In this document: positions 352-5,033 of the stretch, piece after piece
Position numbering within the stretch: the first letter of the stretch is position 1
How the letters are laid out: every line of letters begins with the position of its first letter
Origin: a bacterium
GTDB lineage: Bacteria > Spirochaetota > Spirochaetia > JABEVK01
Direction of reading: 5' to 3'
Assembly (NCBI GenBank): GCA_021781625.1
Contig: JAJXWL010000162.1
Location: 1 to 5,033 of the forward strand
Length of the DNA: 5,033 bases
Notes under the pieces: generated by a model
What the model was told of the DNA's origin: nothing
The model's input: only the letters and a program-made list of their open reading frames with translations
Databases searched by the model: none
Made by a program: the position numbers and the translations under genes

Positions 352-378
352 CCCAGCCGCGTCTCGTAGGCGGCTGGG
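352..378. terminator. Hairpin terminator shared by convergent dnaJ and small ORF
   Basis: A perfect 9-bp GC-rich stem (CCCAGCCGC at 352-360 with GCGGCTGGG at 370-378) encloses a 9-nt loop. An outer AAC/GTT pairing (346-348 with 383-385) may extend it across an internal loop. It lies 27 bp after the dnaJ stop and 5 bp after the minus-strand stop of the small ORF, which is the expected place for a bidirectional terminator between convergent genes. The U-tract is weak on both strands (AGTTGTT on plus), so termination could be inefficient or helped by Rho. The structure is seen directly; its function is inferred. Confidence 0.65.
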
Positions 379-383
379 AGTTG

Positions 384-515
384 TTAAAACCACCACATTC
401 CCAGCTTAAGGTATCCAGCGCCACCTAAGGCATTGAGCAACAAATCACCCCACATGACCAACAGGGGCAGGGCAAAAACACCCAGAACTAGAAAGAGTTT
501 ACTTCGGCTTTTCAT
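384..515 (-). CDS. Small hydrophobic (single-pass membrane) protein, 43 aa, unknown function
   Basis: Minus-strand ORF from ATG at 515-513 to TAA at 386-384. The product starts MKSRSKLFLVLGVFALPLLV and ends GYLKLGMWWF. Basic residues (K2, R4, K6) precede an uninterrupted hydrophobic stretch of about residues 7-22, giving the profile of an inner-membrane single-pass protein with its N terminus in the cytoplasm. An aromatic WWF tail follows. No family is recognised. Three things suggest a real gene: a good promoter (TTGACG, 17 bp, TACTTT) ends 6 nt before the ATG, the stop sits directly against a hairpin terminator, and the ORF fills an otherwise empty gap. An alternative ATG at 533 would give 49 aa with a GGAAGG only 2 nt away, which is too close to act as a normal ribosome-binding site. 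It could be a small regulatory membrane protein or a type I toxin-like peptide; the sequence does not decide. Confidence 0.55.
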   Translation of the reverse strand: MKSRSKLFLVLGVFALPLLVMWGDLLLNALGGAGYLKLGMWWF

Positions 516-521
516 GGATAA

Positions 522-550
522 AAAGTATCTCATCCCCTTCCGGGCGTCAA
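522..550 (-). promoter_or_regulatory. Sigma70-type promoter of the small ORF (leaderless)
   Basis: On the minus strand, -35 TTGACG (550-545) and -10 TACTTT (527-522) are separated by exactly 17 bp. Transcription should start 6-7 nt past the -10 box, which falls on or one base before the ATG at 515, predicting a leaderless mRNA. The -35 box is back to back with that of the divergent synthetase promoter, 5 bp away. No start-site data are available. Confidence 0.6.
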
Positions 551-555
551 TGGAA

Positions 556-585
556 TTGACGGTTCATTCTTTCGACACCTATAAT
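556..585 (+). promoter_or_regulatory. Sigma70-type promoter of acyl-CoA synthetase gene (leaderless)
   Basis: -35 TTGACG (556-561, five of six consensus bases) and a perfect -10 TATAAT (580-585) are separated by 18 bp. The expected start site is 592-593, so the first transcribed base would be at or next to the A of the ATG at 593. There is therefore no room for a Shine-Dalgarno sequence. A GGGG at 587-590 lies too close to the ATG and would be upstream of the transcript. This is the best consensus promoter in the window. Confidence 0.75.
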
Positions 586-592
586 TGGGGTT

Positions 593-2236
593 ATGCCGCA
601 GAATACTCACTGGCCGACGTTAAGCGAGCTGTTCGAGACCACGGTAAAGGCACACCCCGACCGACCGTTTCTCACAGTTTTTATAGAGTCCGAAAAGAAA
701 ATCATTACCTACGCCGAAGCCCGGGTGCTTTGTCACCGTTGGGGGGCTCTCTTCGTGCAACGGGGCATTCGACCTGGACAATCGGTTGCCTTGCGGGGAA
801 AAAACTCACCTTCTTGGGTGTTGGCCTTTTTAGGTTGTGTTCAGGTGGGGGCCGTCATTGTTCCCTTAGACTCCCAAATCTCCGACACCGATGCGGTCAA
901 ATTGGCTCATGCAGGGGAATGCCGACTTTTTGTCCATGATTCCGATTCCAGCGGTGTTCTTTCTTTATTAAAAGATATTCCAGCCCTTTCCCTGGACTCG
1001 GAACTACCCCCGCCGCTGGAAACGATGGGACCTCACAAGCCTGACGATACGGCGGCGATCTTATTTACTAGCGGTACCACAGGCCACCCCAAAGGGGTGA
1101 TGCTAACACACGAGAATCTGACCAGCGACTGCCTCTTAGCGCAAAAGTTGCTCAGTATTTCGGCCGAGGATGTGTTTTATGCGCTTTTACCGCTCCACCA
1201 TGCTTACACGTTGTTGGCCGTATTCTTAGAAGCCGTTTCGGTGGGAGCTTCTTTGCTGTTTGCCGAAAAGCTCGCCATCAGCGCCGTCTTGCACGACCTC
1301 AAAAGGGGTGGGGTAACGATGTTCTTGGCGGTTCCGTTATTATTCAATAAGCTCTTGGATGGCTTGCTTCAAGCGGTGCGCAAAAAAGGCCTTTTTGTTT
1401 GGTGGTCAGTGAGAGCTTTGATGAAGCTATCGGGTGTGGTGAAAAAAACTACAGGGCAAAACCCTGGGCGAAAGTGGTTTCGGTCGTTGCTGGAACAAGC
1501 TGGTCTGGCATCCCTTCGCGTCTGTATCTCGGGCGGTGGGCCTTTAGCCCCCAAGGTTTTTCGCCGCTTGAATGAATTGGGTCTGGATTTTGTGCAAGGC
1601 TACGGACTGACCGAAACATCGCCGATTTTGGCGTTAAATCCTGTGACAAAATACAAAGAAAACTCTGTCGGAAGAATTCTCCCCGGGGTAGAAGCCCGTT
1701 TGCGGGATGTCGATGCTCAAGGTCAGGGCGAACTCGTTGTCAAAGGGCCCATGATTATGAAAGGGTACTTCCGCGACCCCGAAGCGACGGCAGAAGTCCT
1801 CCAAGAGGGATGGCTAAGAACAGGTGATGTGGGCCGTATGGATGAGGAAAACTACCTTTACCTGACGGGACGAGCCAAATCGCTCATCGTTTCGGAAGGC
1901 GGAAAAAATGTTTACCCCGAAGAGATCGAGTATGCCTTTCAAACTCATGCCGAAATTGAGCAAATCTTAGTCAGAGGTTGGTTGAAAGACCGTGAAAAGA
2001 AAGTGGAAGGCATTGAAGCCTTAATTTTTCCGAATCCTGAAAGTGTTAAACTCTGGTCGCAGGGTAAAGCCCCGAGTGAAATCCCCGCTGTGGTCAATTC
2101 AGCGGTGAGCGAGATTGTGGCTCAGGTGAACCGAACCCTTCTACCGTATCAGAAAATCGACCGTTTCACCCTATTGGATACCCCCTTAGAGATGACGACG
2201 ACCCGAAAAGTCCGGCGGTTTACCACAGCGAGTTAA
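593..2236 (+). CDS. AMP-forming acyl-CoA synthetase (long-chain fatty acid-CoA ligase type)
   Basis: Complete 547-aa enzyme of the ANL adenylating superfamily. It would activate a carboxylic acid, probably a fatty acid, with ATP to an acyl-adenylate and then pass it to CoA. Motifs in order: phosphate loop TSGTTGHPKG (159-168); GGGPLAPKV (314-322); QGYGLTETSP (335-344); TGD with the ribose-binding Asp at 412; GRAKS with Arg427 in the hinge; GGKNVYPEEIE (436-446); and a C-terminal TTRKVRR placing the likely adenylation lysine at 539. The extended, basic 260-300 region before the GGGP motif is typical of bacterial FadD/long-chain-type ligases. No signal peptide or clear membrane segment is seen, so it is probably cytoplasmic or peripheral. 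The ATG at 593 is supported by the family-like N terminus (TLSELFE...HPDRPFL) and by the promoter just upstream. It is transcribed alone, divergent from the small ORF and convergent with arfB. The acyl substrate cannot be read from sequence. Confidence 0.92.
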   Translation: MPQNTHWPTLSELFETTVKAHPDRPFLTVFIESEKKIITYAEARVLCHRWGALFVQRGIRPGQSVALRGKNSPSWVLAFLGCVQVGAVIVPLDSQISDTDAVKLAHAGECRLFVHDSDSSGVLSLLKDIPALSLDSELPPPLETMGPHKPDDTAAILFTSGTTGHPKGVMLTHENLTSDCLLAQKLLSISAEDVFYALLPLHHAYTLLAVFLEAVSVGASLLFAEKLAISAVLHDLKRGGVTMFLAVPLLFNKLLDGLLQAVRKKGLFVWWSVRALMKLSGVVKKTTGQNPGRKWFRSLLEQAGLASLRVCISGGGPLAPKVFRRLNELGLDFVQGYGLTETSPILALNPVTKYKENSVGRILPGVEARLRDVDAQGQGELVVKGPMIMKGYFRDPEATAEVLQEGWLRTGDVGRMDEENYLYLTGRAKSLIVSEGGKNVYPEEIEYAFQTHAEIEQILVRGWLKDREKKVEGIEALIFPNPESVKLWSQGKAPSEIPAVVNSAVSEIVAQVNRTLLPYQKIDRFTLLDTPLEMTTTRKVRRFTTAS

Positions 2237-2242
2237 TCGAAG

Positions 2243-2662
2243 CTAACTAAAGTCTGAACGGCGGTTACTTTTGACGAGGCTTCTCAGCCGTTTGGTTTGA
2301 AGTCGCTTTTCTTGAGAAGAGCGAGTTTTTTGAGTGGCTTTGCGCGGTGGGCGAATTTTTAGGGCCTCTAGAATTAGGTTCAGAGCTTTGTCTAAGGCGG
2401 CCGATCGGTTCAGGTCTTGGGTGCGATGTTCCTGTGCCGCTAAAGAAAGACAACCTTCTTTAAGGCGGGAACTCAGCCGCTCTTGGATGAGAAGTCGTTC
2501 TTCGGGACGTAAAACTTTCAGCGAGGCTAGGGGGAGGGTGAGCCAAACTTTCGTATTCAGCTTGTTGACGTTTTGTCCTCCAGGTCCCCCCGCTTTGACA
2601 AAAGTGCACTGGCTATTGGCCGCAATTTCTTGAAAAAGGGTAGCTTTTCTCTGTAAGTCCAT
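2243..2662 (-). CDS. arfB: Peptidyl-tRNA hydrolase ArfB (YaeJ family), ribosome rescue
   Basis: 139 aa, the length of E. coli ArfB (about 140). The class I release-factor catalytic motif appears as KAGGPGGQNVNK, with GGQ at residues 28-30, followed by the LNTKVWLTL strand. There is no codon-recognition domain, which is what separates ArfB from RF1 and RF2. A lysine/arginine-rich tail (about 104-135, including RPPRK, QEKRLQTKRLR) fits the ArfB segment that enters the empty mRNA channel of a stalled ribosome. Known family role: hydrolysing peptidyl-tRNA on non-stop ribosomes without tmRNA. ATG 2662 is the first start after an in-frame TGA and has no Shine-Dalgarno sequence; the promoter -10 box ends 5 nt before it. 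It converges on the synthetase gene with a 6-bp gap, and its 3' part carries that gene's terminator on the other strand. No terminator of its own was found in the sequence beyond its stop. Confidence 0.92.
   Translation of the reverse strand: MDLQRKATLFQEIAANSQCTFVKAGGPGGQNVNKLNTKVWLTLPLASLKVLRPEERLLIQERLSSRLKEGCLSLAAQEHRTQDLNRSAALDKALNLILEALKIRPPRKATQKTRSSQEKRLQTKRLRSLVKSNRRSDFS
2303..2331 (+). terminator. Intrinsic terminator of the synthetase gene, inside antisense arfB
   Basis: TCGCTTTTC (2303-2311) pairs with GAAGAGCGA (2316-2324) in a 9-bp stem with one G-T wobble and a TTGA tetraloop. It is followed by G and six T residues (2326-2331). This is the classic Rho-independent layout for plus-strand transcription, 66 nt past the synthetase stop. 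On the minus strand no T-run follows the stem, so it should not stop arfB transcription. It lies within the codons for the basic tail of ArfB. Confidence 0.8.
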
Positions 2663-2667
2663 GCCCC

Positions 2668-2696
2668 AGGGTAAGACGGAGCTTTTTCAGCGTCAA
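2668..2696 (-). promoter_or_regulatory. Sigma70-type promoter of arfB (leaderless)
   Basis: Minus-strand -35 TTGACG (2696-2691) and -10 TACCCT (2673-2668) are separated by 17 bp. The -10 is a weaker match but keeps the key TA...T positions. The predicted start site is the A of the ATG at 2662 or one base away. The -35 hexamer is identical to those of the two promoters at 545-561, which supports this as the host's own promoter style. Confidence 0.55.
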
Positions 2697-2714
2697 GTAA
2701 CCTGTTATTGATAC

Positions 2715-2752
2715 TATACTGCATTTGACAGTTAACTGCATTTGACAGTATA
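2715..2752. repeat. Tandem dyad operator, probable PadR binding site
   Basis: Two perfect 15-bp direct repeats, ACTGCATTTGACAGT, at 2718-2732 and 2735-2749 (period 17 bp). Each has inverted arms ACTG-N7-CAGT. The whole block is also one large dyad centred at 2733.5: TATACTG (2715-2721), CAGTTAACTG (2729-2738), CAGTATA (2746-2752). The first copy contains the padR -35 box and the second runs into the -10 box, so a bound regulator should block the promoter. PadR proteins are dimeric winged-helix repressors that commonly bind short dyads in their own promoters, so autoregulation is the simplest reading. Action on divergent arfB, whose -35 is 19 bp away, is possible but less certain. Confidence 0.8.
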
Positions 2753-2754
2753 TT
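2725..2754 (+). promoter_or_regulatory. Sigma70-type promoter of padR-MFS operon, inside operator
   Basis: Consensus -35 TTGACA (2725-2730) is followed after 18 bp by -10 TATATT (2749-2754), predicting a start near 2761 and a leader of only about 3 nt before the ATG at 2764. TATTCT at 2751-2756 is an alternative -10 with a poorer 20-bp spacer. The second TTGACA (2742-2747) has no -10 at a workable distance, so it is probably only part of the operator repeat. Confidence 0.65.
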
Positions 2755-2763
2755 CTTATCGAA

Positions 2764-3105
2764 ATGAGAAAAAATGGCCGCCATATGCCGGCATTCCTCC
2801 TGTTGTTTTTAGCGGAGACTCCACTGCATGGTGCCGCATTATTAGCGAAGATGGAAAAGGAACTTCCTTTTTGTTACGCGGATAGTGCCGGACTGTACAG
2901 AGCCTTACAAACACTTGAGGCGGAAGGATTGATTCGAGGCGAATGGGATAGCACCGAAAACGGTGCTCCCCGAAAGGTTTACGCTTTAACCTCGGCAGGT
3001 CGAACCGCTTTGACGTTACAAGCGGAAGAACTTCGCCAACGGCAAGCTAACCTGCAGGTTTTTTTTGAGCGGCTGGAAGCACTTCAGCACAAGGAGAATT
3101 TATGA
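2764..3105 (+). CDS. PadR-family winged-helix transcriptional regulator
   Basis: 113 aa, the size of a short PadR protein with little C-terminal domain. The N-terminal winged helix covers about residues 8-85: helix 1 MPAFLLLFLAETPLHGAALL, recognition region ADSAGLYRALQTLEAEGLIRGEW (39-61), and the wing GAPRKVYALTSAGRTAL (67-83), all family signatures. The last 30 residues (AEELRQRQANLQVFFERLEAL) form the probable dimerisation helix. ATG 2764 is the first start after an in-frame TGA at 2743; no Shine-Dalgarno sequence precedes it and the predicted leader is about 3 nt. The gene overlaps the exporter gene by 4 bp (ATGA). A PadR gene coupled to a transporter is a common drug- or metabolite-responsive pair, in which an inducer releases the repressor. 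The tandem operator just upstream supports autorepression. The ligand is unknown. Confidence 0.9.
   Translation: MRKNGRHMPAFLLLFLAETPLHGAALLAKMEKELPFCYADSAGLYRALQTLEAEGLIRGEWDSTENGAPRKVYALTSAGRTALTLQAEELRQRQANLQVFFERLEALQHKENL
3091..3096 (+). promoter_or_regulatory. Strong Shine-Dalgarno site for MFS gene inside padR 3' end
   Basis: AAGGAG lies 5 nt before the ATG at 3102, within the last codons of padR. It fixes the MFS start and shows that the host ribosome uses classical Shine-Dalgarno pairing, in contrast to the first genes of transcripts in this window. Confidence 0.85.
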
Positions 3106-4301
3106 GCGATACGACACTACCCCGAAGCCGGGGTGGGGTATTCAGTCTGACCATAACTTCGACAGCACACATGCTCAACGATATGTACAGCAACTTTTTG
3201 CCCCAGTTGTTGCCGTTTTTACTGGTCCTGATGCCAGGGTTTACGGCAACCCAAGCCGCGATATTGGTTGCTTCATTCAACATCTCTTCGTCGCTCTTTC
3301 AACCCATTTTTGGGTATTTTGTGGATGCCAAGGGGCGTTCGTGGCTGATCTACCTGGGCACTTTGTGGATGTCCGTGTTTTTGAGCTTAACCGGTGTGGC
3401 TGGCAGTTTTCCCCTGATGGTGGTCTTGGCGGCGACGGCGGGTTTGGGGACCTCAGCCTTTCATCCCCCGGCTTCTTCACTTGTTAATGGACTCAGTGTT
3501 CATCGTAAAGCGGTCTATCAATCTTTTTTTGTTTCGGCAGGAAACTTGGGCTTTGCTCTAGCCCCCCTTCTTCTGGTTCCGTTGTTTCAAGCGGGGGGGA
3601 TTGCCGCCAGCACCTTGCTGTGGATTCCTGGTGTGCTCACCGCAGGCTTGTTGTTTTTCTTCTTACCCAAGCTGAAGCCCTCTGCCCAAAGCTATACTTT
3701 AAAAGAAGTCGCTAGTTCGATTTTTCATGCTCGGCGTGACTTGGCCGTCGTATTGGGAGTCATTGCCCTCCGTGCGGCCGCTTACACGGGGCTTTTGACA
3801 CTGTTACCCCTGTTTTTCCATGCCAAAGGCGTAAGTCAAATCGACTCTGGGCGTTTGACCGGGTTAATGCTTTTGACGGGGGCCGTGGGGGGGCTTTTTG
3901 GCGGCTGGTTTTCAGACCGCTGGGGACGCAAACCCGTGATTGTCATTTCGCTGATGGCAGCCTCCGCGCTTTTCTGGGGTTTCTTGGTCACCTCGGGGGG
4001 ATTCAGTGTTGTCCTTTTGGGGCTGGCCGGAGCCGCCTTATTGGCCAATTTTTCTGTCACGATTGTAGCGGCTCAAGAAACGCTCCCGCACCATAAAGCT
4101 ATGGCCACGGGGTTAAGTATGGGGTTTGCCAATGGCATCGGTGCCTTGGGCGTTATAGGAATCGGCGGGTTAGCGGATCACTTGGGCTTGTTCTCGGCCG
4201 TCGGCTTGGCCGTAAGCTTACCGTTCGTGGCGGGGCTTTTGGCCCTGGTGATGCGAAAAAGTGTCAGTGACCGACAAAAACGCTTTCAGCCAAAAAGGTG
4301 A
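3102..4301 (+). CDS. MFS exporter, fosmidomycin-resistance (Fsr)-like
   Basis: 399 aa, close to E. coli Fsr (about 406 aa), with the hydrophobicity of a 12-helix major facilitator. Fsr-like blocks: TAHMLNDMYSNFLPQLLPFL (21-40) in helix 1; QPIFGYFVDAKGR (67-79), the first motif A (G-x3-D-x2-G-R) between helices 2 and 3; GLGTSAFHPPASSLV (114-128); SAGNLGFALAPLL (145-157); and the second motif A, GGWFSDRWGRK (267-277), between helices 8 and 9. A basic stretch around 190-212 is the central cytoplasmic loop, and the tail after 384 is basic and cytoplasmic. Family members are proton-driven drug or metabolite exporters in the inner membrane. Translation is coupled to padR by the ATGA overlap and an AAGGAG site. 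The substrate is not predictable; fosmidomycin is only the namesake. No terminator was found after the stop, so read-through into the HD-GYP gene is plausible. Confidence 0.9.
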   Translation: MSDTTLPRSRGGVFSLTITSTAHMLNDMYSNFLPQLLPFLLVLMPGFTATQAAILVASFNISSSLFQPIFGYFVDAKGRSWLIYLGTLWMSVFLSLTGVAGSFPLMVVLAATAGLGTSAFHPPASSLVNGLSVHRKAVYQSFFVSAGNLGFALAPLLLVPLFQAGGIAASTLLWIPGVLTAGLLFFFLPKLKPSAQSYTLKEVASSIFHARRDLAVVLGVIALRAAAYTGLLTLLPLFFHAKGVSQIDSGRLTGLMLLTGAVGGLFGGWFSDRWGRKPVIVISLMAASALFWGFLVTSGGFSVVLLGLAGAALLANFSVTIVAAQETLPHHKAMATGLSMGFANGIGALGVIGIGGLADHLGLFSAVGLAVSLPFVAGLLALVMRKSVSDRQKRFQPKR

Positions 4302-4349
4302 TGGCCGCACCAACGCTAAGGGGCAGAGAGTTTTTTAACTTTCACCACC

Positions 4350-4378
4350 TTTACGGATTAAAGATTGCCCTCCATAAT
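4350..4378 (+). promoter_or_regulatory. Candidate local promoter of the HD-GYP gene
   Basis: TTTACG (4350-4355) and CATAAT (4373-4378) are separated by 17 bp. The -10 matches five of six consensus bases and the -35 four of six. The predicted start is near 4384, giving a 14-nt leader that keeps the Shine-Dalgarno site. It is weaker than the other promoters here and overlaps the left arm of the hairpin described separately. Confidence 0.4.
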
Positions 4379-4392
4379 TTTGTTGTGGAGGG
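4368..4392 (+). promoter_or_regulatory. Hairpin sequestering the HD-GYP ribosome-binding site
   Basis: CCCTCCATAA (4368-4377) can pair with TTGTGGAGGG (4383-4392): seven Watson-Crick pairs, one G-T wobble, two A-T pairs and a 5-nt loop. The right arm contains the whole Shine-Dalgarno sequence GGAGG (4387-4391), which sits 6 nt before the ATG at 4398. No T-run follows, so it is not an intrinsic terminator. In RNA that includes both arms the site would be hidden, suggesting translational control. The pairing is seen in the sequence; the regulatory role is inferred. Confidence 0.5.
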
Positions 4393-4397
4393 GCCAG

Positions 4398-5033
4398 ATG
4401 CTCGAGACTATTCTTACGGTGTGTGCAACTTTTCTGATTACCGCGTTTGTGTCCCTGTTGGTGTTGTGGAGAAAGTTCAAAGTTTTAAAACGAAAGCATG
4501 AGGCTGACCGGCGAACAACCGAGGCTTTGACGGAGGTTTTGGTGGAATATGCGGAATTTCGCGGTTCCCCAGACGCCGGGCATGCTAAAAACGTGCGTTT
4601 GTATACTCAATTGCTTCTTGAAGAACTTAGCGAACAAAAAACGGCACCGGAAGTTTTAACCCAACATTTTTGCCGTGCTGTGGTCAGGGCGAGTCCCTTG
4701 CACGATATTGGCAAACTGTTTCTTCCCTCCGAGATTTTTCTCAAAAATGGCCCCCTGACGGTGGAAGAACGCCAGCTGATGCAGACGCATTGTGTGCAGG
4801 GCGAAGCCTTTTTGCGTTCGGCAGAAGAACGTTTGCCTTTTTCATCTTTTTTAGGCATAGCCCGAAATATGGTGATTTCGCACCATGAGTGTTGGAACGG
4901 GACGGGGTACCCCTTCCAGATTTCGGGAGATGAGATTCCCTGGGAAGGCCGAGTCATGGCCCTGGTCGACGTTTACGATGCTCTGAGACGGCCAAAAGTC
5001 TATCGGCCAGCGGTGAGCCATGACGAATGCGTC
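4398..5033 (+). CDS. Membrane-anchored HD-GYP c-di-GMP phosphodiesterase, 3' end outside window
   Basis: 212 codons are present and the frame is open at the window end. Residues 3-23 (ETILTVCATFLITAFVSLLVL) form one membrane helix, followed by a basic, charged linker (about 25-45, possible coiled coil). The HD-GYP domain begins near 45 with VLVEYAEFRGSPDAGHAKNVRLY. Metal- and signature residues are intact: H62, LHDIGK with H102, D103 and K106, H131 in MQTHCVQGE, HHECWNGTGYP (162-172), and MALVDVYDAL with D191. This family hydrolyses c-di-GMP to pGpG or GMP, so the product should be an active cytoplasmic-facing phosphodiesterase. No sensor domain is visible before the catalytic part, so input is through the membrane segment or the missing C terminus. 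The start is set by GGAGG 6 nt upstream. It lies 96 bp after the exporter gene on the same strand, so either read-through or its own weak promoter could express it. Confidence 0.9.
   Translation, partial: MLETILTVCATFLITAFVSLLVLWRKFKVLKRKHEADRRTTEALTEVLVEYAEFRGSPDAGHAKNVRLYTQLLLEELSEQKTAPEVLTQHFCRAVVRASPLHDIGKLFLPSEIFLKNGPLTVEERQLMQTHCVQGEAFLRSAEERLPFSSFLGIARNMVISHHECWNGTGYPFQISGDEIPWEGRVMALVDVYDALRRPKVYRPAVSHDECV

What the first reader, a model, noticed from the sequence alone, without database searches (positions are those of the whole stretch)
522..2766. All four transcript-first genes appear leaderless, while the other two starts have Shine-Dalgarno sites
For the small ORF, the synthetase, arfB and padR, a -35/-10 pair with 17-18 bp spacing ends 6, 7, 5 and 9 nt before the ATG, and none has a usable Shine-Dalgarno sequence. 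The operon-internal MFS gene (AAGGAG) and the HD-GYP gene (GGAGG) do. Seeing this at every promoter-proximal gene in 5 kb suggests genome-wide use of leaderless mRNA for first genes and SD-led initiation for downstream genes. Leaderless mRNAs are known to be common in some phyla, such as actinobacteria and Deinococcus; a widespread case in this lineage may be undescribed.
Basis: partly seen in the sequence, partly recalled or inferred. Interest (0 to 1): 0.75.

Follow-up and report, generated by a model that had tools for sequence, protein, structure and literature searches.

The report
Promoters sitting directly on start codons
In this DNA piece, probably from an uncultured spirochaete, up to four genes seem to be switched on by promoters so close to the start codon that their messages would carry almost no leader, a known but less common way of starting protein synthesis.

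Summary
A scan of both strands for TTGACN, 16-19 nt, TANNNT finds four sites in 5,033 b, and all four end 5-9 nt before an ATG. That motif with ATG runs at 0.6-24.4 per Mb in 99 control genomes of another phylum, against 795 per Mb here. Synthetase and arfB have no other start codon between the upstream in-frame stop and codon 25; padR's start is backed by residues kept in three relatives. Weak case: the small ORF, whose one database relative is called six codons upstream. padR probably keeps a 2-3 nt leader. HD-GYP may also be transcript-first yet has a Shine-Dalgarno site, so the split is 4 of 5. The synthetase's closest named relatives are Spirochaetales. Most likely these are sigma-70 promoters giving leaderless or near-leaderless mRNAs. 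The genome-wide claim is untested: no genome is held and no close relative's DNA was reached. Leaderless mRNAs are already reported in this phylum (about 440 in Leptospira interrogans, PMC5243855). New member of a known kind, moderate interest.

The parts
384..515 (-). Small hydrophobic ORF, 43 codons from ATG 515 (49 codons from in-frame ATG 533)
   Evidence: one relative only (P0121, 98% identical over the 43 residues), called from the upstream ATG; no NCBIfam family; Pfam not searched with it
522..550 (-). Promoter candidate of small ORF: -35 TTGACG 545-550, 17 nt, -10 TACTTT 522-527, 6 nt to ATG 515
556..585 (+). Promoter of synthetase: -35 TTGACG 556-561, 18 nt, -10 TATAAT 580-585, 7 nt to ATG 593
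593..2236 (+). Acyl-CoA synthetase (AMP-binding enzyme), 547 aa, start at ATG 593
   Evidence: Pfam PF00501; Met-to-WPT distance equal in the 6 closest relatives P0002-P0007; no other start codon from the upstream stop to codon 25
2243..2662 (-). arfB, ribosome-rescue peptidyl-tRNA hydrolase, 139 aa, start at ATG 2662
   Evidence: NF006718 ArfB over its cut-off, residues 18-136 on profile 18-136; ArfB chains in the PDB; no other start codon from the upstream stop to codon 25
2668..2696 (-). Promoter of arfB: -35 TTGACG 2691-2696, 17 nt, -10 TACCCT 2668-2673, 5 nt to ATG 2662
2725..2754 (+). Promoter of padR: -35 TTGACA 2725-2730, 18 nt, -10 TATATT 2749-2754, 9 nt to ATG 2764
2764..3105 (+). 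padR family regulator, 113 aa, start at ATG 2764 rather than 2785
   Evidence: Pfam PF03551; residues RK-GRH before Met8 kept in P0123, P0124, P0125
2718..2749 (+). Two identical ACTGCATTTGACAGT elements (2718-2732, 2735-2749), ACTG-N7-CAGT dyads over the padR -35 and spacer: candidate PadR operators
   Evidence: operator role inferred
3091..3096 (+). Shine-Dalgarno AAGGAG of the MFS gene (ATG 3102; the MFS gene overlaps padR by 4 nt)
3102..4301 (+). MFS transporter, operon-internal, SD-led
   Evidence: Pfam PF07690
4350..4392 (+). HD-GYP upstream region: candidate promoter TTTACG-17-CATAAT (4350-4378), SD GGAGG 4387-4391, and hairpin 4368-4392 that would cover the SD in read-through RNA
4398..5033 (+). 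HD-GYP-like HD domain protein, runs off the window, SD-led
   Evidence: Pfam PF13487

Best explanation
The window carries two divergent gene pairs (small ORF / synthetase; arfB / padR) in which each gene is read from its own housekeeping (sigma-70 type) promoter placed so that RNA synthesis starts on, or within about 3 nt of, the ATG. Such mRNAs have no room for a Shine-Dalgarno site and are expected to be read through their 5'-terminal AUG, with initiator tRNA and IF2. The MFS gene, which overlaps padR, and HD-GYP use Shine-Dalgarno sites instead. Shown: promoter sequences, distances, absence of SD, start-codon position for synthetase, arfB and padR. Inferred: transcription start sites, leaderless translation, and the whole case of the small ORF.
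For: Only four TTGACN-N16-19-TANNNT sites in the window, both strands; 4 of 4 end 5-9 nt before an ATG. Shuffle product 1.8e-10. Density 795/Mb against median 7.4 and maximum 24.4/Mb in 99 control genomes and 4.5-12.4/Mb in the 7 genomes (one genome is in both sets). Starts supported independently of any promoter: no competing start codon for synthetase or arfB up to codon 25; Met-to-WPT distance equal in the 6 closest synthetase relatives; ArfB model residue 18 on position 18; padR residues before Met8 kept in 3 relatives. Positive control: TANNNT 4-10 nt before the start in 18 of 65 first genes and 0 of 35 internal genes of three Deinococcus plasmid stretches, against 1 of 28 and 1 of 13 in 50 kb of E. 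coli K-12; window 4 of 5 and 0 of 1.
Against: No RNA data. The Deinococcus signal comes mainly from one of the three stretches (11 of 27; the others 2 of 16 and 5 of 22, with no clear peak), so the control is modest. TSS is typically 5-9 nt after the -10 (recalled), so padR probably has a 2-3 nt leader. Small ORF may start at ATG 533 with AAGGGG just before it, in which case 522-550 is not its leaderless promoter. -10 boxes of small ORF and arfB are only TANNNT-grade, and a generic promoter scan shows no excess. The Turneriella and Leptospira plasmids show no such signature (2 of 15, 2 of 22).
Confidence: 0.82

Rival explanations
1. The promoters are real, but transcription starts some nt away, or a second unrecognised promoter farther up gives a leader; translation then starts without SD by S1 or low-structure recruitment.
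For: padR gap of 9 nt, and weaker -35/-10 combinations farther up (8 of 12 for padR at 26 nt and for arfB at 41 nt). Non-SD genes are studied as a common class in PMC5397173 (passages).
Against: No second TTGACN-N16-19-TANNNT site in either intergenic stretch (77 and 101 bp) or elsewhere in the window; the next best combinations within 70 nt score 7-8 of 12.
Confidence: 0.13
2. The leaderless arrangement is real here but local: a cluster of such genes in a genome that is otherwise mostly SD-led, noticed because the window was selected as striking. (Compatible with the best explanation; it bears on the genome-wide claim.)
For: Only 5 first genes could be judged; one of them (HD-GYP) is SD-led. 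Spirochaete genomes with predicted leaderless genes had 1.8-6.9% (PMC3160421).
Against: Four genes in two separate divergent pairs show it; even the densest of 99 control genomes would give 4 or more in 5 kb with P about 9e-6.
Confidence: 0.4
3. Start codons are misplaced and true starts lie elsewhere with SD sites.
For: Small ORF: relative P0121 is called from ATG 533. padR: P0122, the database's call for this gene, begins at Met8.
Against: Synthetase and arfB have no other start codon up to codon 25; padR residues before Met8 are conserved in 3 relatives and Met8 is Thr in P0125 (the two distant relatives P0126 and P0127 do not share them).
Confidence: 0.04
4. Chance matches to a loose promoter consensus.
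For: The generic sigma-70 scan gave 3 sites against 3.0 expected.
Against: TTGACG/A is near-perfect in all four, and such sites occur nowhere else in the window; shuffle product 1.8e-10.
Confidence: 0.01

Closest known systems
Leaderless mRNAs of Deinococcus (and mycobacteria)
   Same: TANNNT box 4-10 nt before the start in 18 of 65 Deinococcus first genes and 0 of 35 internal genes; [quoted passage not shown] no mycobacterial DNA examined here)
   Different: Here a near-consensus TTGACG/A -35 accompanies each -10 box; in the Deinococcus sets 1 of 65 first genes had a 5-of-6 -35 with a -10 at 4-10 nt
Leaderless mRNAs of Leptospira interrogans (same phylum; PMC5243855)
   Same: About 440 genes with a 5' UTR under 10 nt, 184 and 170 of them (30 and 37 C) starting exactly on the start codon (passages)
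   Different: Apart from sigma-54 sites that study reports no E. coli-like promoter motifs, whereas the window shows clear -35/-10 pairs; a different order of spirochaetes
TA-led (leaderless) genes predicted in bacterial genomes, including 6 of 18 Spirochaetes (PMC3160421)
   Same: TANNNT about 12 bp upstream of the start; in Sulfolobus, cited there, single and proximal genes are leaderless and distal genes SD-led (passages)
   Different: Reported share in spirochaetes with such genes 1.8-6.9% of genes; the window shows 4 of 5 first genes, in 5 kb only

Membership tests
Leaderless gene (TA-led, sigma-70) | -10 box (TANNNT) ending about 4-10 nt before the start codon | tested here: met
   4 of 4 claimed genes, gaps 6, 7, 5, 9
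Leaderless gene (TA-led, sigma-70) | No Shine-Dalgarno site | tested here: met
   No match of 4 nt or more in the last 22 nt at the four ATGs; the alternative start 533 of the small ORF has AAGGGG directly before it
Leaderless gene (TA-led, sigma-70) | Start codon correctly placed, judged without the promoter: synthetase, arfB, padR | tested here: met
Leaderless gene (TA-led, sigma-70) | Start codon correctly placed, judged without the promoter: small ORF | tested here: inconclusive
   the one relative is called from ATG 533
Leaderless gene (TA-led, sigma-70) | mRNA 5' end at or within a few nt of the start codon | not testable with these tools
   needs 5'-end mapping
Genome with widespread leaderless first genes | Genome-wide peak of -10 boxes next to first-gene starts, SD in internal genes | not testable with these tools
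   no genome held; no close relative's DNA reached
Spirochaetales origin | Closest relatives of the window's proteins are Spirochaetales | tested here: inconclusive

The most novel reading that the evidence does not exclude
An uncultured Spirochaetales lineage uses leaderless mRNAs as its default for transcript-first genes, driven by near-consensus TTGACG/A-TANNNT promoters placed on the ATG, with Shine-Dalgarno initiation kept for operon-internal genes and a few first genes; it would be a separate rise (or retention) of Deinococcus-like leaderless usage in the spirochaetes.
Probability: 0.45. Interest if true: 0.5.

Novelty: new member of a known kind. Interest (0 to 1): 0.4.

Why it matters
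If widespread, it adds a spirochaete order to the few bacterial groups where leaderless initiation is a default, with a promoter signature clear enough to read from metagenome contigs. It also has a practical side: gene callers may misplace such starts, as seems to have happened for padR (P0122 begins at Met8).

Tried and rejected
Laying or searching the window's own genome: not available. Fetching DNA of close relatives: the one genome-contig scan gave 14 loci at 28-39% identity, named Deltaproteobacteria, Thermodesulfobacteriales, Planctomycetota groups or just 'bacterium'; viral-contig scans with the synthetase, its alignment and arfB found no relative and with the PadR alignment one locus at 29%. 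Plasmid searches with synthetase and MFS: no spirochaete among the rows shown (15 of 2,659 and 5 of 57 records) or the ten organism names printed in each. A pattern scan of viral contigs (120 stretches, stopped at its limit, 80 listed) found contigs with similar promoters and no evident spirochaete link. Leptospira biflexa and Turneriella plasmids as phylum comparison: no peak of -10 boxes at 4-10 nt (2 of 22 and 2 of 15 first genes), so these two small replicons give no support for a phylum-wide signature. Rfam: nothing at gathering scores in the window. Chance and misplaced starts considered and rejected for three of four genes.
Full report
What was checked. The finding claims that four genes in a 5,033-base window start right behind a promoter, without a Shine-Dalgarno (SD) site, while two others have one. 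I re-derived each element from the sequence. All four promoter-start arrangements are present at the stated distances (6, 7, 5 and 9 nt), and so are the SD sites of the MFS and HD-GYP genes. The small ORF lies on the minus strand (384-515), convergent with the end of a dnaJ-like gene (DnaJ_C).

More than chance. A scan of both strands for TTGACN, 16-19 nt, TANNNT finds four sites in the whole window, and each of the four ends 5-9 nt before an ATG. A second scan, over every ATG, GTG or TTG that opens 35 codons or more (TTGAC[AG], 16-19 nt, TANNNT, gap 4-10 nt), returns just these four genes in the window; in 256 kb of other loci (L001-L025, partly overlapping one another, none from close relatives) it returned one place with two alternative starts. 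Dinucleotide shuffles of the upstream 80 nt give P = 0.0036, 0.0011, 0.0029 and 0.0157, product 1.8e-10. The pattern TTGACR-N16-18-TANNNT-N5-9-ATG occurs 9 to 31 times per genome in 7 genomes of 2.0-4.9 Mb, and at 0.6-24.4 per Mb (median 7.4) in 99 genomes drawn from the phylum of G001, which is not the window's phylum (rates; G001 is in both sets). Some of those sites may be true promoters too, since the pattern read backwards is rarer in most of the genomes. The window has 4 in 5 kb, 795 per Mb; at the highest of the 99 rates, four or more in 5,033 bases has P about 9e-6. Cautions: the window was chosen by a reader for being striking, and a generic sigma-70 scan showed no excess over shuffles (3 against 3.0), because two of the -10 boxes match TANNNT only.

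Are the start codons right? Much hangs on this. Synthetase: between the in-frame stop upstream and codon 25 there is no other ATG, GTG or TTG. I aligned 15 of the 120 listed proteins (one of them, P0001, is the window's own). The distance from Met to the conserved WPT (CPT in P0007) is the same in the 6 closest relatives, P0002-P0007; in six others it is 2-7 residues longer, and in P0031 and P0038 15-17 longer; all are gene-caller starts. arfB: no competing start, and the protein matches the NCBIfam ArfB model over its cut-off with residue 18 on model position 18. padR: no start upstream; downstream ATG (codon 8) and TTG (codon 14) are possible rivals, and P0122, the database's call for this gene, begins at codon 8. 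But residues RK-GRH before Met8 are kept in P0123, P0124 and P0125, and Met8 is Thr in P0125; the two distant relatives, P0126 and P0127, do not share this stretch. So ATG 2764 is the better start. In P0123 and P0124 the start lies one codon farther upstream, in P0125 two. Small ORF: its single relative (P0121, 98% identical) is called 6 codons upstream, from ATG 533, which has AAGGGG just before it; the start, and whether the ORF is a gene at all, stay open.

How it most likely works. Bacterial RNA polymerase usually starts 5-9 nt after the -10 box (recalled, no call). That puts +1 on or next to the A of the ATG for the small ORF, synthetase and arfB, and perhaps on G2761 or A2762 for padR, a leader of 2-3 nt. 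Leaderless mRNAs are described as read through the 5'-terminal AUG with ribosome-bound initiator tRNA, helped by IF2 (passages of PMC10783764). MFS overlaps padR by 4 nt and has AAGGAG, as expected inside an operon. HD-GYP lies 96 nt after MFS, has GGAGG, and has a weaker promoter candidate of its own (TTTACG-17-CATAAT, 19 nt before ATG). If it is transcript-first, then 4 of 5, not all, of the first genes are leaderless.

Controls for the test itself. First gene means: divergent from, or more than 60 nt away from, the upstream neighbour; genes without a visible neighbour or without 80 nt of upstream sequence were dropped. A TANNNT box 4-10 nt before the start then occurs in 11 of 27, 2 of 16 and 5 of 22 first genes (18 of 65) and 0 of 35 internal genes on three Deinococcus plasmid stretches. 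Only the first of the three shows a clear peak over neighbouring distances. In 50 kb of E. coli K-12 it is 1 of 28 and 1 of 13; on the Turneriella plasmid 2 of 15 and 2 of 13; on 50 kb of Leptospira biflexa p74 2 of 22 and 1 of 11; in the window 4 of 5 and 0 of 1. With a -35 of at least 5 of 6 in addition, the counts in first genes are 1 of 65, 0 of 28, 0 of 15, 0 of 22 and 4 of 5. The two spirochaete plasmids thus give no support for a phylum-wide signature; they are small and their gene tables incomplete.

Origin. The synthetase's closest relatives (81-83% identity, P0002-P0004, then 64-65%, P0005-P0007) are Spirochaetales where an organism is named (P0003, P0007). No genome is held for the window, and no DNA of close relatives could be fetched, so the genome-wide claim is untested.

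What is known. PMC3160421 (passages): leaderless genes predicted in 207 of 953 bacterial genomes; Spirochaetes 6 of 18 genomes, 1.8-6.9% of genes; Deinococcus-Thermus mean 39.4%. PMC5243855 (abstract and passages): in Leptospira interrogans about 440 mRNAs have a leader under 10 nt, and apart from sigma-54 sites no E. coli-like promoter motif was reported. [quoted passage not shown] PMC5397173 and PMC10783764 were seen as passages. My searches for leaderless mRNAs in spirochaetes (listings, apart from the papers named) showed no 5'-end mapping in Spirochaetales that reports them; the library lacks most subscription journals, and the listings were cut (15 of 20; 25 of 2,886).

Verdict. The arrangement is real and best explained as leaderless or near-leaderless transcription of at least three genes. 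As a phenomenon it is known, also in this phylum; the possible novelty is its density and its clear -35/-10 signature in an uncultured, probably Spirochaetales lineage, which one assembled genome would settle.

Noticed in passing
window 4350-4400: The HD-GYP SD (GGAGG 4387-4391) lies in the 3' arm of a predicted hairpin 4368-4392 (RNA 4340-4425 folds at -24.1 kcal/mol, 1 of 200 shuffles as stable). RNA read through from MFS would hide the SD, while RNA from the candidate promoter 4350-4378 would lack the 5' arm: a possible switch between the two transcripts.
   Followed up: partly
window 2708-2749: Two identical ACTGCATTTGACAGT elements (ACTG-N7-CAGT dyads, 17 nt apart) cover the -35 and spacer of the padR promoter, with a diverged 17-nt copy just upstream (76%): possible PadR autoregulation.
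   Followed up: partly
window 545-561: The -35 boxes of the divergent small-ORF and synthetase promoters form an inverted repeat, CGTCAATGGAATTGACG, with 5 nt between the boxes, so the two promoters may interfere with each other.
   Followed up: no
window 352-378: Perfect 9-bp inverted repeat CCCAGCCGC / GCGGCTGGG with a 9-nt loop between the convergent dnaJ end and the small ORF: possible two-way terminator, read directly from the sequence.
   Followed up: no
L040, L052, L055, L061, L070, L092, L115: These 7 viral loci, found by the promoter pattern, carry a second site TTGACA-18-TANNNT-6-ATG before a 767-794 aa ORF (PHROG 459, peptidase, in the two tested, L070 and L055): phage genes that also look leaderless.
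   Followed up: partly
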